This document shows positions 5,110-44,222 of a stretch of DNA of 64,000 nucleotides, in pieces (the stretch's first letter is position 1; each line of letters starts with the position of its first letter). The stretch covers positions 18,117,678 through 18,181,677 of the forward strand of contig NC_062227.1 in assembly GCF_902686445.1 (NCBI RefSeq), given 5' to 3'. Source of the DNA: Sciurus carolinensis. Taxonomy: Eukaryota; Chordata; Mammalia; Rodentia; Sciuridae. The notes below the pieces were generated by a model. The model saw only the letters and a list, made by a program, of their open reading frames with translations. It was not told where the DNA came from and searched no databases. A program made the position numbers and the translations under genes.

Positions 5110-5610
5110 GAAGCAAAATATACACAATGGAATAATATTCAGTCACAAAGAATAATATGGTATTTGCAGAAAAATGGATGGAATTGGAAATATCATACTA
5201 AGTGAAATAAACCTATCCCAAAAACCCAAAGGCCAAATGTTTTTCTGATAAGTGGATGATGATATAAAATGGGGGTTGGGGAATGGAGTGAGAGAAGAAT
5301 GGAGGAACTTTAGATTACAAAGAGGGAAATGAGAGGGAGGAGGGGGTTATAAAAAATGGTGGAATGAGACAGACATCATTGCCCTATGTACATGTATGAT
5401 GACATGAATGGTATGAATCTACATTGTGCACAACCATAGAAACAAAACATGAGGGGCTGGGGAGATAGCTCAGTAAGTAGAGTGCTTGCCTGCAAGCACA
5501 AGGCCCTGGGTTCTATCCCAGCACCAAAAAAAAAAATCAGTTTCAAAACATGTACTCCACTTGTGTACAATGAATTAAAATGCAATCTGGAAAAAATAAT
5601 TAAAACATAA
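5110..5610 (+). mobile_element. L1 3' end (ORF2 tail and 3'UTR)
   Basis: The sequence begins in the last codons of L1 ORF2 (the 'tacacaatggaataatattc' block shared with the other L1 copies in the window). It runs through the G-rich purine 3'UTR (5,270-5,350) and ends after 'gtgtacaatgaattaaaatg'. It is severely 5' truncated. An ID SINE is nested inside it at 5,453-5,536, splitting the 3'UTR. Confidence 0.8.
5453..5536 (+). repeat. ID SINE (tRNA-derived)
   Basis: The copy starts 'ggggctggggagatagctca', carries an A-box-like and a B-box-like Pol III promoter element and ends in a short A tail. The L1 sequence 'caaaacatg' occurs on both sides (5,443-5,451 and 5,544-5,552), consistent with target-site duplication inside the L1 3'UTR. 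Confidence 0.92.
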
Positions 5611-11200: not shown

Positions 11201-12840
11201 AAAGCAATCATGAATTTATTTGCCAAACAAGAGGCCCAGAATATCCACAGTGATAAATACCAAGAAGAGTAAAGCAGGAGGGATCACAATGCAGACCTAG
11301 AGAGTAATGGTAACAAAAATGGCATGGCATTGGCATCAAAATAGATGTGTAGTACAATGGTACAGAAGACACAGAGACAAACCCAAATAAATTGGGTTTT
11401 CTCATACTAAATTGAGGCACCAAAAACAGACAATAAAAAAAAAGAAAGCCTACTAAACAAATGGTGCTGGCAAAAATGGAAATTCATATGTAGCAAAATG
11501 AAATCAAAACTCTCTCTCTAACCCTGTGGAAAAATCAACTCAAAGGTGAGTAAAGATGTAGGCACTAAAACAGAGACCCTGCAAATAAGAGAAGAAAAAT
11601 CTCCACGTAGTCAGCTTAGAAACTGACCTCTTTAACAAATCTCCAAAAGCATAAGAGTAGAATAATAATATGGATGGACTCAAAATAAAAATCTTCTCAG
11701 CAATGGAAATAATCTGTCAATCTGTAACATGAAGAGAGTGCCTACAGAATGGAAGAAAATCTTTACCATATACACCTTAGATAAAGTGATAATCTACAGG
11801 ATATATGAAGAACTCAAAATATTGAATATCAAAAATAACCCAATCAGGGCTGGGGATATAGCTCAATTGGTAGAGTGCTTGCCTTGCAAGCACAAGGACC
11901 TGGGTTCAATCCCCAGCACCACACACACACAAAAAAAAAACCACAACAATCCAATGAATAAATGGGATAGTGAACTGAACCAACACTTCACAGAAGAAAA
12001 ATACAAATTATCAACTAACGTGAAAAATTCCTCATCATTTCTACAATTAGAAATATTCAACTCAAAACTTCTTAAATATTTTTTCCCACTCATATTACAA
12101 TGATAATTTTTTAAAAATAACACAAAAAATATGTAAAAAAATATGTTTCGTTGATGTGTGGAAAAAGGTACACTCATACATTGCTGCTTGATCTACAAAT
12201 TGATTTAACCATTCTGGAAATTTTATTGAGGATTCTCAAAAAACTCAGAATTAAACCACCATTTTACCCAGTTATCCCACTCCTTGGTATAAACATAAAA
12301 AGATTTAAAACCAGCATACTACAGTGACTCAGCCACATCACTGTTTATAGCAGCTCAGTTCACATAAACTAAACTAGGGAATGAACCTAGATGCCCTTAA
12401 ACATATGCATGGATAAAGAAAATGTAGTATATGCAGACAATGGAATGTTAATTAGACTTAAAGACAAAGGAAATTATTGCATTTTCTAGTAAGTGCATGA
12501 ATCTAGAGCATACCACAACAAGTGAAAAGGGTCAAACCCAAAAGACTAAAGGCCAAATATTTTATCTGGCAGGTAAATGCTGATCCATAATGGGGGGTAG
12601 GTGGAATAAAAAGTCCTTGGATTGTGTAGAAGATAGTGAGAGGAAAGGAATCAGTGTAAGGTGGGGAATGACAGTAAAATGATCTGTACATCATTACCCT
12701 GAATATATGTGTGATTACACTACCTTTGTGTTTGCAACACTTGCAGCCCATGAAAGGAGAATTTGTACTCCTTTTGTGTACAATTTTTCTGAATGCATTG
12801 TACTGTCACATATAACTAATTGGAAACAATTAAAAATAAT
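8280..12840 (+). mobile_element. L1 LINE, 5' truncated, with decayed ORF1 and ORF2
   Basis: The element enters near the coiled-coil part of ORF1 (8,330-8,880, matching the 'gaccatttggaag' block of the L1 at 50.5 kb). It continues through endonuclease, reverse transcriptase and C-terminal parts of ORF2 (about 8,950-12,530) and a 3'UTR to about 12,840. All frames are broken by many stops and indels; the longest surviving frames are 9,539-9,745 and 11,729-12,103. The 3' end lies directly against zinc-finger codons of the minus-strand ZNF relic, so it inserted into that exon. An ID SINE sits inside at 11,847-11,940. No clear target-site duplication was found. Confidence 0.85.
11847..11940 (+). 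repeat. ID SINE nested in L1
   Basis: The element begins 'gggctggggatatagctcaa', has an intact B-box-like 'gggttcaatcccc' and ends with a CA-rich then A-rich tail. The flanking L1 text 'aataacccaatca' and 'aacaatccaatga' looks like an imperfect target-site duplication. Confidence 0.92.
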
Positions 12841-12849
12841 TTTGACAAA

Positions 12850-14620
<1,771 letters not shown>

Positions 14621-16784: not shown

Positions 16785-16871
16785 ATTTTTTTGGCAGTGC
16801 TTGGGATTGAACGCAGGGCCTTGTGCTTGCAAGGCAAGCACTCTACCAACTGAGCTATATCCCCAGCCCCC
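16785..16871 (-). repeat. ID SINE
   Basis: On the minus strand the sequence starts 'gggggctggggatatagctc' and runs through the tRNA-like promoter to an A-tail (seen as T-rich at 16,785-16,792). Short 'ccattt' flanks may be the target-site duplication. Confidence 0.92.
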
Positions 16872-31582: not shown

Positions 31583-31749
31583 GATTTACATAGGGCAATG
31601 TTGTTTGATTCATTCTGTTATTTTCCCCTTCCCTCCCACCCTTCCCACCCCTCTTTTCCCTCTATACAGTCCTTCCTTCCTCCATTCTAATCCCCTCCCC
31701 CCATTTTGTGTCATCATCAGTGTATCAGCAAGATCATTCTTTCTTTGGT

Positions 31750-34700
31750 TTTTTGAGATGGGCTTATCTCACTTAGCATGATATTTTCCAATTTAATCCA
31801 TTTGCCTGCAAATGCTATAATTTTATTATTCGTTGTGGCTGAGTAATATTCCATTGTATAAATATACCACAGTTTCTTTATCCATTCATCAATTGAAGGG
31901 CATCTAGGTTGGTTCCACAATCTGGCTATTGTGAATTGAGCAGCTATGAACATTGATGTGGATGTATCTCTGTATTCTGCTGATTTTAGGTCCTTTGGGT
32001 ATAGGCCGAGGAGTGGGATAGCTGGGTCAAATGGTGGTTCCATTCCAAGCTTTCTAAGGAATCTCCACACTGCTTTCCAGAGTGGCTGCACTAATTTGCA
32101 ACCCCACCAGGAATGTATGAGTGTACCTTTTCCCCCACATACTCTCCAACACATATTGTTGCTTGTATTCTTGATAAAGGTCATTCTAATTGGGGTGAGA
32201 TGGAATATTAGGGTAGCTTTGGTTTGCATTTCTCTTATTATTAGAGAAGTTGAATATTTTTTCATATTTTTGCTGATTGCTTGTAGATCTTCTGTGAAGT
32301 GTCTGTTTATTTCCTTAGCCCATTTGTTGATTGGATTATTTGTATTCTTGGTGTACTCTTTTTTGAGTTCTTTATAGATTCTGGAGATTAGTGCTCTATC
32401 TGAAGTATGGGTGGCAAAGATTCTCTCCCACTCTGTAGGCAATCTCTTCACATTGCTGATAATTTCCTTGCAGAGAGAAATTTTTCAGTTTGAATCTATC
32501 CCAGTTATTGATTCTTGATTTTATTTCTTGTACTATGGGAATCCTGTTAAGGAAGTCTGATCCTTGGTGGACATGTTAAAGATTTGGATCTACTTTTTCT
32601 TCCATAAGATGAAGGATCTCTGGTCTGATTCAGAGGTCATTAATCCATTTTGAGTTGATTTTTGTGCAGGGTGAGAGATAGGGGTTTAGTTTCATTCTGC
32701 TGCATATGGATTTACAGTTTTCACAGCACCATTTGTTGAAGAGTCTATATTTTATCCATTGCATATTTTTGGCACCTTTGTCTAATATGAGAATATTGAA
32801 TTAATTTGGGTTTTTGTCCATGTCCTCTACTCTGTACCATTGATCTACTTGTCTCTTTTGATACCAATACCATGCCATTTTTGTTACTATTGCTTTTAAG
32901 TATAGTTGAAGGTCTGGTATTGCGATACCCCCTGCTTCACTCTTCATGCTAAGGAGTATTTTAGCTATTCTGGGTTTCTTTATCTTCCTGATGAATTTCA
33001 TGATTGCTTGCTCTATTTCTGCAAGGTATGTCATTGGAAATTTAAATGGAATTGCACTGAATCTGTATAGCACTTTTGGTAGTATGGCCATTTTGACTAT
33101 ATTAATTCTGCATATCCAAGAACATGGGAGATATTTCCATATTCTAAGGTTTTCTTAATTTCTTTCTTTAGTGTTCTGTAGTTCTCATTGTAGAGGTCTT
33201 TCACCTATTTTGTTAGATTGATTCCCAAGTATTTGATTTTTTCGAGGTTATCATGAATGGGGTAGATTTTCTAACTTCTCGTTCTGAAGATTCATCACTA
33301 TGTATAAAAATGCATTGGATTTATGAGCATTGATCTTATATCCTGCTACTTTAAAGAATTCACTTATCAGTTCTAAAAGTTTTCTGGTGGAATTTCCCAG
33401 TTCTTCTAAATACATAATCATGTCTTCAGTAAATAGGGATAGTTTGAGTTCTTCTTTTTGTATTTGCATCCCTTTAATTTCTTTGGTCTAATTGCTCTGG
33501 CTAGAGTTTCAAGGACAATGTTGAACAGAAGTGGTGAAAGAGGGATCTCTGCCTTTTCCCAGTTTTTAGGGGGAATGCTTTCAGTTTTTCACCATTTAGA
33601 ATGATATTAGCCAGGGGCTTAGCATAGATGACCTTTACAATGTTAAGGAATGTTCCCACTATCCCTATTTTTCTAGTGTTTTGAGCAGAAAGGGATGCTG
33701 TATTTTATCAAGTGCTTTTTCTGCATCTATGGAAATAATCATGTGAGTCTTGACTTTAAGTCTGTTGATATGATGATTTATGTTTATTGATTTCCAAATG
33801 GTGAAACTACCTTGCATTCCTGAGTTAAAACCCCTTTGATCATGGTGAACTATCTTTTTAATATGTTTTTGTATGCAATTTGCTAAGATTTTGTTGAGAA
33901 ATTTTGTGTTGATGTTCATTAAGGATATTGGTCTGAAATTTTCTTTCCTCAATGTGTCTGTCTGGTTTAGGTATCTGGGTGATATGGACTTCACAGAATG
34001 AGTTTCAGAGGGTTTCCTACTCTTCTATTTTATGGAATACTTTGAGGAGTATTGGCATGAGCTCTTCTTTAAATGTTTTGTAGAACTAGGCTGAGAACCC
34101 ATCTGGTCCAGGACTTTTCTTTGTTGGTAGGCTTTTGATGACTTCCTCTATTTTATTATTTGAAATTGATCTATTCAAGTTGTGTATGTCTATGTCCTCC
34201 TGGTTCAGTTTAGGTAATTCATATGTCTCTACAAACCTGTTGATGTCTTCAAGATTTTCTGATTTGTTGAAGTATAGATTTTCAAAATAGCTTCTAATTA
34301 TATTTTGTATTTCACTCATGTCTGTAGTGATACTTCCTTGCTCATTCCAAATTTTAGTAATTTGAGTTTTCTCTCTCCTTCTCTTTGTGAGTGTGGCTAA
34401 GGGTTTATCAATTTTGTTTATTTTTTCAAAGAACCAACTATTTATTTCATTAACTTTTCTATTGTTTCCTTTGTTTCAATTTCATTGATTTCAGCTCCCA
34501 TTTTAACTATTTCCTGTCTTCTACTACTTTTGGTGTTGATCTGTTCTTTTTCTAGGGCTTTAAGCTGTAGTGTTAAGTCATTTATCTGTTGATTTTTTTC
34601 TTTTACTGAATATGCTCCAAGAAATAAATCTTCCTCTAAGTACTGCTTTCCTAGTGTCCCAGAGATTTTGATATGATGTCTTTGTTCTCATTTACCTCTA

Positions 34701-35540
34701 AGAATTTTTTTTATTTCCCTCCTGATGTCACCCATTATCCATTCATCATATAATAGCATATTATTTAATCTCCAGGTGTTGGAGCAGTTTCTGTTTTTTA
34801 TTCTGTCATTTATTTCTAATTTTAATCCATTATGATCTGATAGAATACATGGTAGTATCTCTATCTTCTTGTATTTGCGAACATTAGCTTTGTGGCATAA
34901 AATATGGTCTATTTTAGGGAAGGATCCATGTGCTGCTGAGAAGAAGGTATATTCGCTCTCTGTTGAATGGTATATTCTATATATGTCTGTTAAGTCTAAA
35001 TTATTGATTGTGTTATTGAGATCTATGGTTTCTTTATTCAACTTTTGTTTGGAAGATCTGTCCAGTGGTAAGAGAGGCATGTTAAAATCACTTAGTATTA
35101 TTGTGTTGTGGTTTATTTGATTTCTGTAATTGAGAAGGAATTGTTTGATGTACATGGATGAGCCAAAGTTTGGGGCATAGATATTTATGATTGTTATGTC
35201 TTGCTGAATTATGCTTCCCTTAAGCAGTATGAAATGTCCTTCTTTATCCCTTCTGATTAACTTTGATTTGAAGTCCACATTATCTGATATGAGAATGGAT
35301 ACTCCAACTTTTTTGCTCTGTCCATGTGCGTGGTATGTTTTTTCCCATCCTTTCACCTTTAGTCTGTGGGTATCTCTTTCTATGAGATGAGTATTTTACA
35401 GGCAGCATATTGTTGGATTTTTCTTTTTAATCCAATCTGCCAGTCTATGTCTTTTGATTGATGAGTTCAGGCCATTAACATTCAGGGTTCTTATTGAAAT
35501 ATGATTTGTATTTCCAATCATTTGACTCATTTTTGTTTTT
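31750..35540 (-). pseudogene. L1 ORF2 (endonuclease-reverse transcriptase), broken
   Basis: ORF2p nicks target DNA and reverse-transcribes L1 RNA. The 222-codon frame 34,688-35,356 holds most of the endonuclease, with SDFN and SDHNG catalytic-region motifs preserved. Reverse transcriptase pieces follow at 33,665-33,994 and 33,251-33,469. In the latter the polymerase signature reads FTED instead of an ADD-type motif, so the active site is damaged. The frame 32,801-33,091 and the 244-codon frame 31,717-32,451 give the thumb-side and C-terminal regions. At least five frame breaks separate these pieces. Confidence 0.85.
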
Positions 35541-35599
35541 TGACATGACTTGTTTTCTCCTTTTTTTGCTATTCCTTTATGCTAGTTCCTCCCTTTGCT

Positions 35600-36640
35600 G
35601 ATTTGCATCATTGTTTTTCATCTCTTCCTCATGGAATATTTTGCTGAGAATGTTCTGTAATGCTGGCTTTCTTTTTGTAAATTCTTTTAGTTTCTGTTTA
35701 TCATGGAAGGATTTTATTTCATCATCAAATCTGAAGGTATGTTTTGCTGGGTGTAAGATTCTTGGTTGGCATCCATTTTCTTTCAGGGCTTGATATATTT
35801 TGTCCCAAGCTCTTCTAGCATTTAGGGTCTGGATTGAAAAATCTGCTGATGTTCTTATTGGTTTCCCCTGAATGTAATTTGATTATTTTTTCTTGCAGCC
35901 TTTAAAATTCTGTCTTTATTTTGTATGTTAGTTATTTTCCTAATAATGTGCTTTGGTGTGGGTCTGTTGTAATTTTGTGTATTTGGAGTTCTATAAGCCT
36001 CTTGTACTTGATTTTCCATTTCATTCTTCAGATTTGGAAAATTTTCTGATATTATTTCATTGAATAGATTGTTCATTCATTTGGTTTGTTTCTCTGTGCC
36101 TTTCTTAATCCCAATAATTCTCACATTTGGCCTTTTTCTGATATCCCATAATTCTTGTAGATTCTGTTCATGATCTTACCGTCTTCTCTGTTTGGTCAAC
36201 TTTGTTTCTAAGATTAAACATTTTTTCTTCAATGTTTGAGGTTCTGTCTTCCAGGTGTACTATCCTATTGGTTATGCTTTCTGTGGAGTTTTTAATTTGG
36301 TTTACTGTTTCCTTCATTTCAAGTATTTCAGTTTTTTTTTTTTTTCAGTATCTCTAACTCTTTATTGAAATGATCTCTTGCTTCCATATTTGGTCTTTTA
36401 ACTGTTGATTGGTGCGATCATTTAATGCCTGCAATTGCTCTTTCATCTCATCCTTCAATGCCTGCATTTGCTCTTTTATGACCGTATTTGCTTCTCTGAT
36501 TGTTTTAATTAGGTACATTCTGAACTCTCTTTCTGACATTTCTTCTGCCATGCTGTCATTGGGTTTTATTGATATAGCATCTAGGTGTTTTGGGGACATT
36601 TTCTTCCCTTGTTTTCTCATATTGGTCAGATATCAGCGGG
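35600..36640 (-). pseudogene. L1 ORF1 (RNA-binding protein), broken
   Basis: ORF1p is the trimeric RNA chaperone of L1. The open frame at 36,354-36,620 gives the N-terminal part with a run of Q/L/K heptads (KEQMQALKDEMKEQLQAL), typical of the coiled coil. The frame at 35,855-36,076 covers the end of the RNA-recognition domain and the start of the C-terminal domain (IQNKDRILKAARKNNQ). The two are separated by stops and frame changes, so no full ORF1p can be made. Confidence 0.8.
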
Positions 36641-36808
36641 ACCCTGAGATATTGCAGATTTCCTCTATTGGCTTATAGTGTCCCTGTAGATTTCCAGTAT
36701 ATCACCTCCTCACCTTCAGTAGCCTGCAGTCTTGGAGGAACTTGATAATGCAGTGCTTCCGAAGAATGCTGCCTTGGCCCACTACTGGGTGCGCGATTGG
36801 GGGATTGG

Positions 36809-37310
36809 TGTGTGTGGAAAGCCTCTCTGTGGGTGATTCTGCTCCAAGAAGCTGACTTTGTTTGGGCCTGCCGCCGGATGGAGCCCGGACTGCTTGGGAA
36901 TATCTCTGGCCCTCCTGCCCTGGTCCAAGAAGCTGCCTGCAGAACAGACCATGGCCTGCCACTTGGGGCTGGTTGTGCATGGAAAGCCTCTCACTAGGCG
37001 GGTCTGCTCCAAGAAGCTGGCTGTAGGCTCGGCCTGCTGCTGGATGGAGCCGGGCTGCTTGGGAAAGCCTCTTGCCACCCTTCCTTGGTCTGAGAAGCTG
37101 TCTGAGGACTGGGACGCACCAATGGATGTGGAACTGGGGACTGGAGGTGCTCCGAAAGCCTCTCACTAGGTGAGTCTGCTTGGAGAAGCTGACTGTGGAA
37201 CCGTCCTGCTGCCAGATGGAGCCGAGCCACTCGGGAAAGCCTCTCGCCACCCTGCCCTGGTTTGAAAAGCTGCCCACTGTCCTGGCCTGCTGCCTGGGCC
37301 GAGCTTCACC
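36809..37310 (-). repeat. Tandem monomer-like units in L1 5'UTR
   Basis: Three units can be aligned on shared blocks 'gaaagcctctc', 'aagaagctg' and 'ggatggagcc'. They start near 36,809, 36,973 and 37,145, with 'gaaagcctctc' repeats 165 and 172 bp apart. Identity is partial but collinear over the whole unit. They are GC-rich and sit just inside the L1 5' terminus, the position of promoter monomers in mouse L1. Confidence 0.75.
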
Positions 37311-37433
37311 CAGTTGGAGCGACTCACCCAGCATCTCTGAGTTGGTCCGAGTCTCTCAGTACCTCCCCTTCTTGAATCCTGAGTTCTGGAGCAACAGGAG
37401 ATGCAGTCACCTTCTAGATGCCATCTTGAAAAG

Positions 37434-37511
37434 GTTCTTGTGGTACCTTTAGCAGATTGACCCATATAAATTATAAGTTTGTGCACAGCAAAGGAAAATA
37501 TGTTCCCAAAT
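37434..37511 (+). repeat. 3' remnant of the 5' LTR
   Basis: 'cccatataaattataag' and 'tgtgcacagcaa' here recur at 42,354-42,383 in the 3' LTR, with a shared 'tggtggtac'-like block upstream. Only about 78 bp of the 5' copy remain. Confidence 0.85.
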
Positions 37512-37529
37512 TGGCGTAGTCGGCAGGAT
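37512..37529 (+). promoter_or_regulatory. Retroviral primer-binding site, serine tRNA type
   Basis: 'tggcgtagtcggcaggat' is complementary to the 3' end (including CCA) of mammalian tRNA-Ser of the AGA/TGA type as I recall it, with all 18 bases matching. It lies directly after the LTR remnant, as a PBS should. It is the start site for minus-strand DNA synthesis. Confidence 0.85.
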
Positions 37530-37839
37530 CCACTGGGGTGCCAAAGCAATGCCATTGTTTAAAAAAAGGGGCAGAGTAGATGTGTCAATGTGATATTCCT
37601 GGATGGAAAGATGCTCAGTTTAGCTTCATGGCTCAGGAATGGGCCATAGGGACTGGTTTGGGGGAACGTTGGGATGTTAAATTCTGAATAGCTGAATCCC
37701 CTCAAGTTATTGAGGTCTTGCAGACTGTGCAGGTAGATAAAGGCAAATAATTTACAGCTATTACTCATTGAGGATGGGTTCTGTTGTCCACATATAAGAA
37801 AAAGTGCTTGCACACACAAGATTTTTTTTGGGAAAAACT

Positions 37840-38214
37840 AGCTATGGAAAATGAGCTTACTGAGCTACAAAGTAAATTGGCTATGCTGCAATATTAGAAT
37901 TTTATTTTGGGAGATCAGGCTCAACATTATCAGAATGTAGCTGAGATGGTTGCAGTGCAGTGTGCTAAATGTAAATATAAAAAATGGAAGGTAAGGTAAA
38001 TGTGAAGAAAGAACATCTCGTAATAATTGCTACTGCAAAGGCTGATTGGGATCATGATACATGGGATGGGGACATTTGGGATGACATTGAGGATGATGTG
38101 AACTGGGATCCTTTGGGTGATGAGTCTCATAAAGATGATGAGCCAGAAATATCCTCCAATTTTGTAGGCAAAACCTTTATCAAGGAGATATGGAAATGGT
38201 ATATACAAAATTGA
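37840..38214 (+). pseudogene. Gag-like leader/coiled-coil remnant (uncertain)
   Basis: From about 37,840 a stretch reads as a short heptad-like segment with one early stop. It is followed by the open frame 37,984-38,214, rich in D and W (for example DWDHDTWDGDIWDD). The position between primer site and pol suggests a residue of gag or the gag-pol join, but no capsid or zinc-knuckle motif is visible, so the assignment is positional only. Confidence 0.4.
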
Positions 38215-38369
38215 GTCAAAGCAAGACCTGCAGGTATTTTACAATCGCATGAACTTATAGCAAATTTTCCTGATGAACAATTACCCAAAGTATCTAGTAA
38301 AGAATGTATAGAACAATCTCCTGTTAAATATAATGAAATATATGATAAATTAACACCTACACAAGAACA

Positions 38370-38800
38370 TGCATGGTTTACAGATGGATCAGTAAATGAA
38401 TGCTATTGGAGAGCCTCAACTTTTAACCCATCTAATAAAAATATATTAGAAAAACAGGGTAATGATCAAAGTAGTCAATATGCTTAATTATGTGCAGTAT
38501 TCATGGCTTTACAATATGAAGAGGAAAAGAAATGTCATTTGTTTACAAATTCCTGGGCTGTAGCAAATGAGTTAACTACCATACCATTTATACCTAAATA
38601 GTATGAAAATGTTTGGAAAATAAGGGATAAACAATTATGGGGAACAGAAATATGGAAAAGTATTTGTGAAATGCTTAAATGTACTAACATGTCTGTATTT
38701 CACATAGATGCTCATTCTTGGAGAGACACCCTGGAACATGAGTATAATACAACGGTGGACAATCTGGCTAAAATAACCATTTTAGAAGAAAACAGTTCAC
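38370..38800 (+). pseudogene. Retroviral RNase H domain, inactivated
   Basis: RNase H removes RNA from the RNA-DNA hybrid during reverse transcription. The frame through codon 38,383-38,385 (first catalytic Asp, in FTDGS) runs to 38,760. The second catalytic position is a stop codon (TAA, 38,485-38,487), the third reads Asn (38,548-38,550) instead of Asp, and the fourth Asp (38,758-38,760) is kept. A further in-frame stop lies near 38,600. Both the break and the substitution rule out activity. It is followed directly by the integrase zinc-binding region in another frame. Confidence 0.85.
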
Positions 38801-39430
38801 AGTCTGGCTAAATGGGCTCATCAAAAGACAGGATATGTCAGACCTGCTGCTATGTATAGGTGGGCATGTGAATAAAGAATATCTGTTCCATTATCTAAAT
38901 GTAAGGAAACAGTTATGCAATGTTGCATTTACCAATTGGATAAAGTTTGGCCAGTGCTTTCCATTGACACTGGAGAATTAAGTAGAGGAACTCAACCAGG
39001 TCAGATTTGGCAAATAGATATATAGGACCTCTACCCATGTCTAGAGGATGTAGATATATTTGTACTTGCGTAGATACATATTCTGGGGTGTGAGTAACTT
39101 AAGCATATAGAGATGCTACACAAAGGAACACTATTAGAACTTTAGACATAATAACTTTATATTATGAAACAACTTTGCAAATCCAAAGTGATAATGGCTC
39201 TCATTTTAAAGGAAAATTAATACAATTATACTGCCAAGCAAATAGTATTGAATTGATATATCATATTGCATATTATCCACGGGCTGCAGGGCTGATAGAA
39301 TGAATGAATGGTCTTTTTAAAAAATTTAGAAAACAGAAATGGTAAATATGTACAGTGAAAAGATAATTTATTTAAAGCTTTAAAACAATTGAAAAACCAA
39401 ATCAGAAACTCCCTTGTCTTGAATGATGAC
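38801..39430 (+). pseudogene. Retroviral integrase, inactivated
   Basis: Integrase joins viral DNA to the host genome. A degraded HHCC-type zinc-binding part (about 38,809-38,960) keeps one His and a Cys pair but has lost its second His position and has stops. The catalytic core is clear: Asp at 39,073-39,075 (VDTYSG), Asp at 39,190-39,192 (SDNGSHF) and Glu at 39,298-39,300, all in one frame with exactly 35 residues between the second Asp and the Glu. A TGA follows the Glu immediately, other stops occur near 39,025 and 39,091, and a frame change separates the core from the zinc-binding part. Confidence 0.9.
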
Positions 39431-39529
39431 TCCAAATTTACAAATTCAGGATGTGGAAATTTCTCATATAAAATGGTGGACCTTACATCCTAAAGTCCAA
39501 CTTCCCTGGCAAGGCTCTCCTGCTTCTTC

Positions 39530-39830
39530 TGATCATAACTTGCATAGTGTAACAGGTATTCTTATCCCTCCAAGTCAAACTAAAGTGATACCAATAGGCC
39601 TGGGATTTGGAATCCCTCCCCAACACTTTGGGCAGATTGCTGAATGATCTAGCCTGGCCCTATAAGAAATCCAAATCATGGCCAGCGTAATTGACTTTCA
39701 TTATTGAGGAGAAATTAAAGTTTTATTACATAATGTATCCCCTGATCTATTCCTAATTAAAGCTGAAATGTGAGTTGCTCAAATAATTTTAATACCTTAT
39801 ATAATGCACAATAAATGGACTCAAATAAAA
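39530..39830 (+). pseudogene. Retroviral dUTPase downstream of integrase, inactivated
   Basis: dUTPase hydrolyses dUTP and limits uracil in viral DNA. One frame carries recognisable family motifs in order: a degraded motif 1 (about 39,515-39,540), motif 2 with SSLAL after a stop at 39,645-39,647, motif 3 around VID (Asp codon 39,693-39,695) followed by a TGA at 39,705-39,707 and GE, and motif 4 ending VAQII after a TGA at 39,771-39,773. A TAA lies at 39,663-39,665. Three of the four stops are TGA, consistent with CpG decay. Its place after integrase is typical of ERV-L-type elements. Confidence 0.85.
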
Positions 39831-40019
39831 CAACCTAGTCTGCATACCAATAGGAAAGGTGGTTTGGATTGACAGATATTATTGCAGGGAACAAAGTGTG
39901 AATAAAAGGACAAGAAACTGATGTTCCTTAGTTGCAGAAATAATATCACAGGAAAATAATAATACAGTAATAGTAATGATTCCTGGAGATAAACAACCTA
40001 AAATATTACCTACTAACCA

Positions 40020-41834
40020 TCTATTTTTATGGAACTAGATTATGAAATAGATCTTCATGACAAGTCCTTTAATATGGGCCTGGACTCCTGGAATAGAACT
40101 TCTGGTCAGATGGTATTAGAGGAACAACATAGGCAATAGGACAAAATAATTTTACCTGCTCAACTAAGAAAAAAATGTAACTTTGCTAATGTGACTGTGA
40201 GTGGACAAAATATAACTGGATGGAAGAGAAAATCATATGCATATTGGTTAATATCCTCCAGTAATAATGAAATATAAGTAAATATTATCACTAAAGTATT
40301 AATAATATGTAAATTTTCCACATTAAAATTGCAATTCAAATATAGATAGTATTTGACACAAGCCATAAATAATTGCAGTATCAATGGTACTAAGGATTTT
40401 GCTTTTAATGTTAATATTTCTGCCTTTATTCTATGTAGCAATGGAAAAAATATTATGGGACTAGGAGTGTGGGTTAATTATATATGGTATTCTATTAATA
40501 ACAAGCCTTAGATTAATGCTCCACAAGTAATATGAGTGTCCCATACTTGTAGTAATGTAAGTTTCTTAGCTAGTAAGTTATTTATACATTTTAATGTTTC
40601 TTTTCCCCTGACTTCCTTGTGCACCCAAATAAGAAGGGCCTGGTATGATACTTTATTAGGAGGATTAGGAGCTTGGAAAAAAATTGCAAATTCAATAGAA
40701 TTAGAAGTATTATATTCTCATCTATGAAATGCTGGAAAAGATACAGCTCAAGGTATAAATTTAAATGCTCAATGGTTGCCTACTAGTATTATCCCTCATC
40801 AAAATACCTTAACCTATCAAGAACAAATGTTATAAATATTTAAAACTTCCCAAGTGGAACAATAGAAAGGAGATACTAATATTAATACATGGTTAAATTT
40901 GACTTGTTGTAATATTCAAATGTTACTTATTTATCTCCAAAAGAAAAGGGCACAAAGATTAATTCAACAAGAGCATAGTAATATCTGGGGATATCTGCTT
41001 CCCCCAGGAGCTCAAAAGACTTCCCCCATTGTGGTGGATTGTACTTCTGCTTGGTGTACTGGAACTTTACCTATTTGGTAAAAAATTATAAGGTTTTATG
41101 TTTTCATGTTTTACAAGTAACCCATAAAACTTATATAATGTTGCCCCACATTGAAGGGACTCACATTGATGAACAGAATATAACTTATAAATTAATAGAT
41201 TACATGTCCACCACCCATGGGCCTGTATGTCAAGGATTAACCCACATAATGGAACACTGTTGCAGCACTCTATTAATATTTATGGACATTGTATCCTCTA
41301 AAAAATTTTACCCTACTATATGAAATTGAACCTCAACATATTTGCATGGGAAATGATAATAGTAATAAATTACAATAGATAAATTTATCTACTCCTTTTG
41401 TGGAATGTTTAAAAGATGTGGAAATCTTGTATTGGGGCAGAGAAACATTCTACTTATCCCCTGATATTAATAAAGAGTTTAATATTAATTGGATTTCTAC
41501 CCCCTTACCAATGCCAAATATTTATATTTACTTATCCCTACCTACTATCTTAACACATTCAAATTTATTGTACCAATATCTAAAGCATAATAAACATTCT
41601 CTGACAAAGCATCAAATACCCACAACTATTTTTTCCAATAAGTTAACTAATTTGTCAAATGCAATAACTGAGGACACTAATCATAATTGGTCAGATTTGC
41701 TGTTTTCTAGTGCTAGTGCTTCTAAATACTTTTCAGCTGTGTTTTCTCTGATCTTTTGTATTGGCATTTTAATCATATTATGTAAATGTAATTGTCAAAT
41801 GTATTATCAAATCAAACAATGTACCATAGAATGA
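40020..41834 (+). pseudogene. Env-like glycoprotein relic
   Basis: Several broken frames together look like a retroviral surface plus transmembrane protein. 40,160-40,600 has a cluster of N-glycosylation sequons (NVT, NIT, NCS, NGT, NIS, NVS). The open frame 40,536-40,727 has a basic pair (IRR) followed by a Gly/Leu-rich stretch (LLGGLG), compatible with a worn cleavage site and fusion-type segment. 40,899-41,081 has a heptad-like helix and a Cys pair. The longest frame, 41,400-41,834 (144 codons), ends with a hydrophobic anchor (about 41,730-41,783, FSLIFCIGILIILC) and a short Cys-rich tail. There are many stops and frame changes. Family assignment is by architecture and position, not by confident homology. 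Confidence 0.65.
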
Positions 41835-41878
41835 TAATGACTTCCTTTACTTACCCTCCTAAACAATCCTAGGGCTGA

Positions 41879-42395
41879 AATGTAGAAACAAATGGAGTCT
41901 TGTTTAAGAGCACTTTCAAAAAGTGAAATCAGGGCAAGGAATAAGCAACGTGCATGAGAAACTTAGTCATCTGGCACTGTCCCTGTTCAAGGATAGACAA
42001 GCTCTCTGTCCAAGAACATTAAAAAACTTAAAGACATCTGGTTTCTGCTCTCAAGGCCTGACTCCTGGCCAGATCCAGGTCTGGAGACCAAACGTAATTA
42101 TGGCACTGAGTCCACTGACTCCAGACAATTACTTTATATGTTTACTCCAGATTATTTAAAAAAGATGAGAACTCAAAGGTGACAAGACTGCATTCTTTGG
42201 TTATGTAAGCTGTGAAATGCCTGTGATGTCTCTCTGGTACTGAGTTGGTATGCTATAGGGGATGGTTTTCCTTTTGTATATACTTTATATGTCTTAATAA
42301 AAGATTTACTATGTTTTCCTATATGACTTATGGTGGTACATTCACCAGATCAACCCATATAAATTATAAGTCTGTGCACAGCAATGGGAAATACA
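41879..42395 (+). repeat. 3' LTR (ends approximate)
   Basis: It follows the env-like frame by about 45 bp. I take 'tgtagaaaca' at 41,879 as the likely start, but no good polypurine tract was seen. The end is set by homology with the 5' LTR remnant and lies near 42,390-42,400. Confidence 0.6.
42296..42301 (+). promoter_or_regulatory. LTR poly(A) signal AATAAA
   Basis: A canonical hexamer in 'cttaataaaagattt', near the R/U5 side of the 3' LTR and about 95 bp before its estimated end. Confidence 0.7.
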
Positions 42396-44118
42396 CACAA
42401 AGTTTTTTCTTACATTTTTCTGCACCTTGTCTGGTATAAAGACATCCTTCTGTCTCTATTTCTGCTGATGTGACTATTTATTAGCCACCAGATCAGGTAT
42501 TGAGAATAATTTCTTTATATATTTGACAAAAGTTCATTAATTTAAACATTAAAATATGGAAATGTAGCATAATAAGAAAATGCAGAACAATTTCATTTGG
42601 AATTGCAAATGCATAAATAGTAAGTGTACCTTACGATCTCTTCCATATATTAAACAATTAATACTTTATATAATATTTATAATAACAGTTGACTATATGG
42701 TGTCAATATATTTTGACACATTAAATTGTAGTAACATTAGAAATTTGCAATAATACAAAATCACAACAATACTAAGAAATGTATAAGAAGGAAATGCAAT
42801 TGGAAGCAGAGCACTGGCAATTGTGCAGGGGATGCTTAGGGAGGGCTGTGGTAAATACACAATCTTCATCATTTATATGAATTGTAGAGGACCATCTCAC
42901 AGGGATGGTTCTTTCTGTTCAAGAGTCTGTCTCAAAGTAGAATTGAGTTATGTGAGTGAAATTTCTCTTAAGAACTATCTTAGGACCTCAGGAAAACTGA
43001 CAGCCACCTTCTGGAGAAGTGAAGGGGAGCAAAGGAGCATCCTGTGAGATTTCCTAAAGGAAAGGAGATAATGGGAGTCTATAGGATTAATCTAAAAAGA
43101 AAGAGTAAGAACAGTCTCCACAAAAACACCCCAACCCAGCTTTACCAAGGAAGACACAAATAAAATATACTGTTGGCTACTGGAAGTAGAAGGAAGTTAA
43201 AATCAAACTTCTTTCCACAAGGGCAAGTCTGAGACTGATTTCTAAGAAGAGTAGCTTTTGGAAAGTGCACTTTTACCCAAAGTAATGAAAATCCTCAGGA
43301 TCTCCCATGAGTCCAGGATGTTTAAATTCATGTAACCAAACATAATAATGGGTTACAGAATTAAAGCTCAACAATATTGAGAGATGATGTAAAATGTTTG
43401 TCAATCTATATATGTATTACTAATTTTTAGTTAAGAAATATCTCAGTGCACTTGAAGGAAAGAGAATCAATATAGAGTGATCACAGAATTTCACTGTGAG
43501 GATAGAAAAGAGAGCTATTCATGATCACACTGGAGTCCTCTCAGGCTAAGAAGACAGACTTATCCTAAGATATTACAGTGTGATTAGAGAGAGTGAGAGA
43601 AATAGGAAACCAGAAAAATCTAAGAAACAAAATCCACTAGTCTCCAAAACATAGGATCACACTGGCCATAGGAGTATGTTCCCATAATCTTAGTCTTCCT
43701 TGGTGCACAGCATCCCCAAGAGGTATGACATGGATTTGCTCCAAGACATCCTCATTCCCAGGGTGCCTAGAATTTCTCTTAAACCAAGGTTAACACAGAG
43801 TCATCTTTTTTATAGTCTTAAAGAAGATAATATTCTATAGAATTCTAGGAGGGCAATTAACATCTTCATATTATGGATCAAACCATGAGATCAGAGAGCA
43901 TTTTTAGTTTCCTCTTTCTTAGAATGAGGGTGCCCTATTCTAATTATGAACACTTACAACCTCAGTAGAAAAGAGAACCAGAAAAAGCAGAGATATTTTT
44001 AATCTCACAAGGCCAAGAAGAATCTCCTCTGGGACTTCTCATGTGAATGCAAGCAGGCACAGAGCCCCCAGGGGGCCAAATCTGCAGCTGCCAGGCAAGG
44101 TCTGCTTAATACTTGCTG
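42396..44118. other. Kappa V upstream flank, no gene seen
   Basis: No gene, RNA or assigned repeat. Moderately AT-rich unique-looking DNA. Confidence 0.5.
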
Positions 44119-44126
44119 ATTTGCAT
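44119..44126 (+). promoter_or_regulatory. Immunoglobulin promoter octamer ATTTGCAT
   Basis: A perfect ATTTGCAT in the context 'ttgctgatttgcatgtttcc', the arrangement of kappa V promoters. It lies 97 bp upstream of the leader ATG at 44,223 and would bind Oct-1/Oct-2 in B cells. Confidence 0.9.
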
Positions 44127-44222
44127 GTTTCCCCAGAGCCCATTTCTGCTTCTCAGAGTCCCCGTTAACAGGTTGCTTGGTGAATCTGGGCAACAGGAGC
44201 CTCAGGCAGGGCCAGACTGTGC

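What the first reader, a model, noticed from the sequence alone, without database searches (positions are those of the whole stretch)
37512..41834. Retroviral relic combining class III pol order, serine-tRNA primer site and an env-like region
dUTPase sits after integrase, as in ERV-L-type elements, yet the PBS matches tRNA-Ser rather than tRNA-Leu. An env-like region with sequons and a membrane anchor follows. ERV-L elements usually lack env. This may be a poorly described env-bearing rodent class III lineage, possibly related to the tRNA-Ser-primed group known in humans as HERV-S.
Basis: partly seen in the sequence, partly recalled or inferred. Interest (0 to 1): 0.8.

Follow-up and report, generated by a model that had tools for sequence, protein, structure and literature searches.

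The report
Decayed rodent provirus with envelope relic
A broken-down retrovirus fossil, in what is probably a rodent genome, has a serine-tRNA primer site, a likely dUTPase after its integrase and then what is likely an envelope gene; related human elements are reported to have the dUTPase or an envelope but not both, so it may help show how this virus line came to lack its envelope gene.

Summary
At about 37435-42399 lies an old, heavily damaged provirus: LTR ends 87% identical over 61 nt; an 18/18 primer site for tRNA-Ser; weak RNase H and clearer integrase relics; a likely dUTPase directly after the integrase core; and a 1.8-kb region with far fewer stops (8 of 354 codons, about 30 expected) and more N-glycosylation sites (9, 2.1 expected) than shuffles give. 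It opens with an ATG overlapping the pol stop and ends in a membrane anchor just before the 3' LTR. Most of gag, protease, reverse transcriptase and most of the 5' LTR are missing.

Best reading: a likely class III, ERV-L-like provirus with both dUTPase and env. In humans these are reported apart: HERVL has the dUTPase; HERVS, HERVL32 and HERVL66 have class I envelopes without it. Frog and crocodile elements have both. A HERV-S link is not supported. The env-like frame lacks the class I TM hallmark (CX6CC), and the pieces searched match no known envelope.

Limits: no tree, no other copies, no Repbase/Dfam comparison. Class and env identity rest on anatomy and weak domain matches.

The parts
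37435..37508 (+). End of the 5' LTR (rest missing)
   Evidence: 66 nt at 85% and 61 nt at 86.9% to the 3' LTR; the exact end at 37508 is inferred
37512..37529 (+). Primer binding site, tRNA-Ser (AGA/TGA type)
   Evidence: 18 of 18 bases; only site with 13 or more of 18 in the window
37560..38211 (+). Probable gag remnant
   Evidence: By position only; two pieces gave no convincing family match
38215..38808 (+). RNase H remnant, broken by stops
   Evidence: One piece hits Pfam RNase_H at E 0.017, under cut-off; PDB RNase H only at E 0.9
38819..38932 (+). Integrase zinc-finger relic
   Evidence: First His to first Cys 34 residues; two of four ligands kept
39017..39300 (+). Integrase catalytic core relic, with stops and a frame change
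   Evidence: Pfam rve E 2.2e-4; PDB integrases; D-X35-E
39500..39869 (+). Likely dUTPase remnant after integrase
   Evidence: 16 PDB matches, 15 named dUTPases, best E 0.036; further dUTPase-like blocks in frame (motifs recalled)
39829..40038 (+). Tail of pol with its stop at 40036-40038
   Evidence: Open pieces in one frame ending in a stop
40029..41834 (+). Likely env remnant, broken by stops and frame changes
   Evidence: Low stop count and many sequons against shuffles; ATG overlaps the pol stop in the -1 frame
41727..41783 (+). Predicted membrane anchor near the env end
   Evidence: Hydropathy 2.63 over 19 residues; the only confident helix of a poor model
41881..42399 (+). 3' LTR (ends inferred from TG and CA); AATAAA at 42296
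   Evidence: 42333-42393 matches the 5' LTR end; signal
31584..37432 (-). LINE-1 abutting the cut 5' LTR (right end approximate, between 37274 and 37435)
   Evidence: Matches four other L1-like stretches of the window; 172-base monomers at 36815-37274

Best explanation
This is the decayed remains of a retrovirus copy, likely of class III (ERV-L-like), that has a tRNA-Ser primer site and a likely dUTPase straight after its integrase, followed by what is likely an envelope gene. When active it would have primed reverse transcription with tRNA-Ser, kept uracil out of its DNA with the dUTPase, inserted itself with its integrase, and made Env, probably from a spliced message, to leave and enter cells (all inferred from family knowledge). 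The copy is now dead: most of gag, protease, reverse transcriptase and most of the 5' LTR are missing, and the remaining genes carry stops and frame changes (shown). It is best placed beside the class III elements of frogs and crocodiles that have both dUTPase and env, and not in HERV-S (inferred).
For: Matching LTR ends. Primer site 18 of 18. Integrase core. Integrase then dUTPase order, the order reported for MuERV-L and class III elements. First His to first Cys spacing of 34 residues as in ERV-L and XtERV-S, not as in MLV. Open, sequon-rich region with a C-terminal anchor just before the 3' LTR. ATG overlapping the pol stop in the -1 frame, as in XtERV-S. Env region shows no second match in the window.
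Against: No tree, no second copy and no reference ERV-L could be compared. The integrase piece scores best in PDB against HTLV-2, SIV and HIV (PDB rows shown name no ERV-L or foamy virus). D-D distance of 173 nt with a frame change fits no class cleanly. dUTPase has no Pfam hit and no clear stop deficit. No env piece matched a known envelope (nine of ten pieces in Pfam; six of ten in PDB). Sequon excess also in a second frame. No clear signal peptide was seen in the first env pieces.
Confidence: 0.72

Rival explanations
1. A class III backbone that captured a class I (gamma-type) envelope, now worn past recognition. This differs from the best reading only in where env came from.
For: Every class III envelope met by Vargiu et al. 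clustered with class I (PMC4724089); XtERV-S has a class I-like TM.
Against: No CX6CC in three forward frames of 39900-41840; nearest is CX9CC at 41228, about 154 residues before the anchor. No CXXC in ten pieces. Pol pieces of the same element still find relatives while env pieces do not.
Confidence: 0.35
2. A rodent relative of HERV-S.
For: tRNA-Ser primer site (that HERV-S uses serine is recalled); ERV-S has env sequences.
Against: HERVS lacks the dUTPase and has a class I envelope; here a likely dUTPase and no CX6CC. Serine primers also occur in HERVL, 2 of 87 chains.
Confidence: 0.06
3. A class III element in which the 40.0-41.8 kb part is not env but another repeat or captured gene.
For: No match of tested pieces to any envelope family.
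Against: The ATG overlaps the pol stop, the frame ends in an anchor before the 3' LTR, sequons are many, and no second copy of it lies in the window.
Confidence: 0.12
4. An endogenous foamy virus.
For: The 34-residue His-Cys spacing also fits foamy virus.
Against: Likely dUTPase after integrase, marked absent in foamy virus in PMC8278194 Table 2; a figure legend in PMC1224870 does speak of a dUTPase of foamy viruses, while its text gives that position to MuERV-L. Primer is serine; foamy viruses use lysine (recalled).
Confidence: 0.04

Closest known systems
XtERV-S (Xenopus) and the African bullfrog class III ERV
   Same: dUTPase after integrase and env; XtERV-S also has a tRNA-Ser primer and an env start overlapping the pol stop in the -1 frame (PMC8278194)
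   Different: Their TM has CX6CC, not found here; frog hosts; the bullfrog element uses leucine
CrocERV41 and other env-bearing ERV3
   Same: Close to mammalian ERV3, dUTPase after integrase, env present (PMC4299795 sections 7, 12)
   Different: Crocodilian; primer not stated in the passages seen; env not compared here
HERVL / MuERV-L
   Same: dUTPase after integrase
   Different: MuERV-L is env-less with a leucine primer; no HERVL env identified
HERVS, HERVL32, HERVL66
   Same: Mammalian class III with env; HERV-S serine primer is recalled
   Different: No dUTPase, class I envelopes

Membership tests
Class III dUTPase-bearing ERV (ERV-L-like) | dUTPase directly after integrase | tested here: met
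   (weak E-values, 15 of 16 matches named dUTPases); order
Class III dUTPase-bearing ERV (ERV-L-like) | Integrase zinc finger spacing HX4HX28CX2C | tested here: inconclusive
   First His to first Cys fits (34 residues); the other two ligands are replaced
Class III dUTPase-bearing ERV (ERV-L-like) | Catalytic spacing DX58DX35E | tested here: inconclusive
   DX35E met; D-D is 173 nt with a frame change
Class III dUTPase-bearing ERV (ERV-L-like) | No Gag zinc finger, no GPY/F | tested here: inconclusive
   No CCHC in 37560-38360, but that part of gag may be deleted; one GPY at 39478 in another frame than the dUTPase frame
Class III dUTPase-bearing ERV (ERV-L-like) | Groups with ERV-L in an RT or integrase tree | not testable with these tools
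   RT is missing; no references or homologues could be fetched
Class III dUTPase-bearing ERV (ERV-L-like) | 5-bp target-site duplication | not testable with these tools
   The left end of the provirus is missing
ERV-L in the strict sense | No env gene | tested here: not met
   Likely env region present
HERV-S | tRNA-Ser primer site (recalled) | tested here: met
   18 of 18
HERV-S | No dUTPase in pol | tested here: not met
   Likely dUTPase found; HERVS lacks it
HERV-S | Class I envelope | tested here: inconclusive
   No CX6CC or CXXC found, but decay could hide them
XtERV-S-like class III with class I TM | Serine primer, dUTPase after integrase, env start over pol stop in -1 frame | tested here: met
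XtERV-S-like class III with class I TM | CX6CC in TM and CXXC in SU | tested here: not met
Endogenous foamy virus | No dUTPase in pol | tested here: not met
   Likely dUTPase; absent in foamy virus per PMC8278194 Table 2

The most novel reading that the evidence does not exclude
The env-like region is a fossil of an ancestral, non-class-I envelope of the dUTPase-bearing class III line in mammals: the 'original env' of ERV-L that Vargiu et al. called unidentified, caught in an element that still had both genes.
Probability: 0.2. Interest if true: 0.8.

Novelty: new variant of a known kind. Interest (0 to 1): 0.48.

Why it matters
In human class III elements the dUTPase and env are reported apart, and the original env of HERVL, 'if it ever existed', 'remains unidentified' (PMC4724089 section 34). 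A mammalian copy with dUTPase, serine primer and a likely env would join the mammalian line to the frog and crocodile forms. It would also give a concrete sequence with which to ask whether ERV-L lost an ancestral env or its relatives kept capturing new ones.

Tried and rejected
HERV-S membership: rejected because of the likely dUTPase and the missing class I hallmarks. Foamy virus: unlikely because of the dUTPase. LINE-1 inserted into a whole 5' LTR: the missing LTR part was not found in the 4.6 kb to its left (best E 0.09) or elsewhere in the window, and no convincing target-site duplication was found (longest exact match 8 bases), so truncation or deletion is more likely. The Pfam TrbL_4 match to the anchor piece (E 0.0041, under its cut-off) was taken as chance, as were thioredoxin, beta-lactamase, enterotoxin and similar PDB matches to env pieces. 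PPR protein matches are sums of tiny repeats. A single-sequence model of the 151-residue env end was poor (mean pLDDT 46.2; only the anchor helix confident), so no fold search was made. Searches for relatives in viral contigs and in prokaryote genome contigs found none, which says little for a vertebrate element.

Full report
What is there. The finding names 37512-41834. The element is somewhat larger. The last part of a 5' LTR at 37440-37500 matches 42333-42393 over 61 bases at 86.9%, so a provirus spans about 37435-42399 (outer ends inferred). Twelve bases after the aligned LTR end stands a primer site, 37512-37529, that matches the 3' end of tRNA-Ser (AGA/TGA type) at 18 of 18 bases.

What is missing. 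Only the last 70 or so bases of the 5' LTR survive. To the left lies a LINE-1 on the other strand (31584 to about 37432). The missing LTR part was not found on its far side or elsewhere in the window. Between 37.56 and 38.2 kb there is a probable gag remnant, judged by position; two pieces of it gave no convincing family match. No protease or reverse transcriptase was recognised between there and RNase H, so the usual RT tree is impossible. The coding remnants carry stops and frame changes. This copy cannot make virus.

Pol. RNase H is weak (Pfam E 0.017, under cut-off; PDB RNase H only at E 0.9). The integrase core is clearer (Pfam rve E 2.2e-4 for one 66-residue piece, under the curated cut-off). 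The E lies 36 residues after the second D, as in the four elements tabled in PMC8278194; the D-D distance is 173 nt across a frame change and fits neither class III nor MLV cleanly. The distance from the first zinc histidine to the first cysteine is 34 residues, which fits ERV-L, XtERV-S and foamy virus but not MLV; two of the four ligands are replaced. Against a simple reading, the integrase piece scores best in PDB against HTLV-2, SIV and HIV; of 85 matches 60 were shown, none labelled foamy virus or ERV-L, and many rows name no organism.

dUTPase. The piece 39423-39644, which follows the integrase core, matches 16 PDB sequences at E up to 10, best 0.036; 15 are named dUTPases and one a putative uncharacterized protein. 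Pfam gave no match to it, and the stop count over 39423-40035 is not clearly low (11 against 15.2, P 0.157). The rest of the frame shows further dUTPase-like blocks in order, with stops (motifs recalled). A dUTPase after integrase is the position described for MuERV-L (PMC1224870, passages) and for class III elements (PMC8278194 section 8).

The env-like region. In 40017-41078 one frame has 8 stops in 354 codons where shuffles give 29.9, and 9 sequons where they give 2.1; neither value was reached in 300 shuffles. In 41277-41834 the same frame has 2 stops in 186 codons (14.5 expected; 0 of 300) and 4 sequons (1.4 expected, P 0.047). Between them a different frame is open (41088-41320, 0 stops in 77 codons, P 0.007), so the relic has frame changes. 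The frames were picked from six after looking. In the flank control 42400-44200 the lowest stop P of six frames was 0.017. A second frame in 40017-41078 also had 8 sequons, so the sequon excess is partly base make-up. The first ATG, 40029, overlaps the pol stop at 40036-40038 in the -1 frame, as described for XtERV-S (PMC8278194 section 9). The frame ends in a strong membrane anchor and a short tail at 41834, just before the 3' LTR. By position, frame, glycosylation sites and anchor it is most likely env. No clear signal peptide was seen in the first pieces.

Which kind of env. Nine of ten stop-free pieces were put to Pfam and none matched an envelope family; six of ten were put to PDB and none matched a solved envelope. 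There is no CX6CC in three forward frames of 39900-41840; the nearest is CX9CC at 41228, about 154 residues before the anchor, which is further away than in a gamma-type TM (the usual spacing is recalled). No CXXC was found in ten pieces. The class I hallmarks were thus not met, but decay could hide them.

Against the literature. Vargiu et al. (PMC4724089; section 34 and passages read) report that nearly all HERVL have the dUTPase, that HERVS, HERVL32 and HERVL66 lack it and have class I envelopes, that every class III envelope they met clustered with class I though no extensive search was done, and that the original HERVL env, if it existed, is unidentified. They report serine primers in 2 of 87 canonical HERVL chains and call primer use unstable. 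The MuERV-L paper (PMC5930517, passages) says no ERV-L with env is documented. Outside mammals the combination is known: CrocERV41 has dUTPase and env (PMC4299795 sections 7 and 12), and XtERV-S has dUTPase, env and a serine primer (PMC8278194; passages and sections 8, 9 and 13). The crocodile paper's Figure 2 boxes further Repbase elements with env; the figure is not held, so a mammalian element with both genes may already be among them. In the listings of my ten paper searches and the passages read I saw no mammalian element described with both; the library holds open-licence papers only.

Verdict. A real, old, likely class III provirus with a likely dUTPase and a likely env. It is a new variant of a known kind and not a member of HERV-S. 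Age is poorly fixed: 8 differences in 61 LTR sites, 13%, 95% interval 6-24%. Host: three ID-type SINE matches with 0, 1 and 3 mismatches fit a rodent (the SINE sequence was recalled); the species was not established.

Noticed in passing
12852-14458: Two arrays of an 84-base repeat (12852-13690, 13922-14458) that look like C2H2 zinc fingers read on the minus strand (motif recalled), broken: 14 to 31 stops per frame in 12800-14500 and only 1 to 3 strict fingers per frame.
   Followed up: partly
36815-37274: Tandem monomers of about 172 bases, 2.7 copies, at the 5' end of the minus-strand LINE-1.
   Followed up: no
39829-40038: Pol runs on for some 50 or more codons after the dUTPase-like blocks; this tail could be an integrase C-terminal domain with the dUTPase nested before it (the one piece tested, 39922-40035, found only chance-like PDB matches).
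   Followed up: partly
5454-5491, 11847-11884, 16832-16869: ID-type SINE copies (3, 1 and 0 mismatches to a recalled sequence); the one at 11847 is also called as a tRNA by Rfam (11852-11921).
   Followed up: partly
41379-41834: The env end holds a 151-codon stop-free stretch, one of six stretches of 150 codons or more in the window; whether it is kept by chance was not tested.
   Followed up: no
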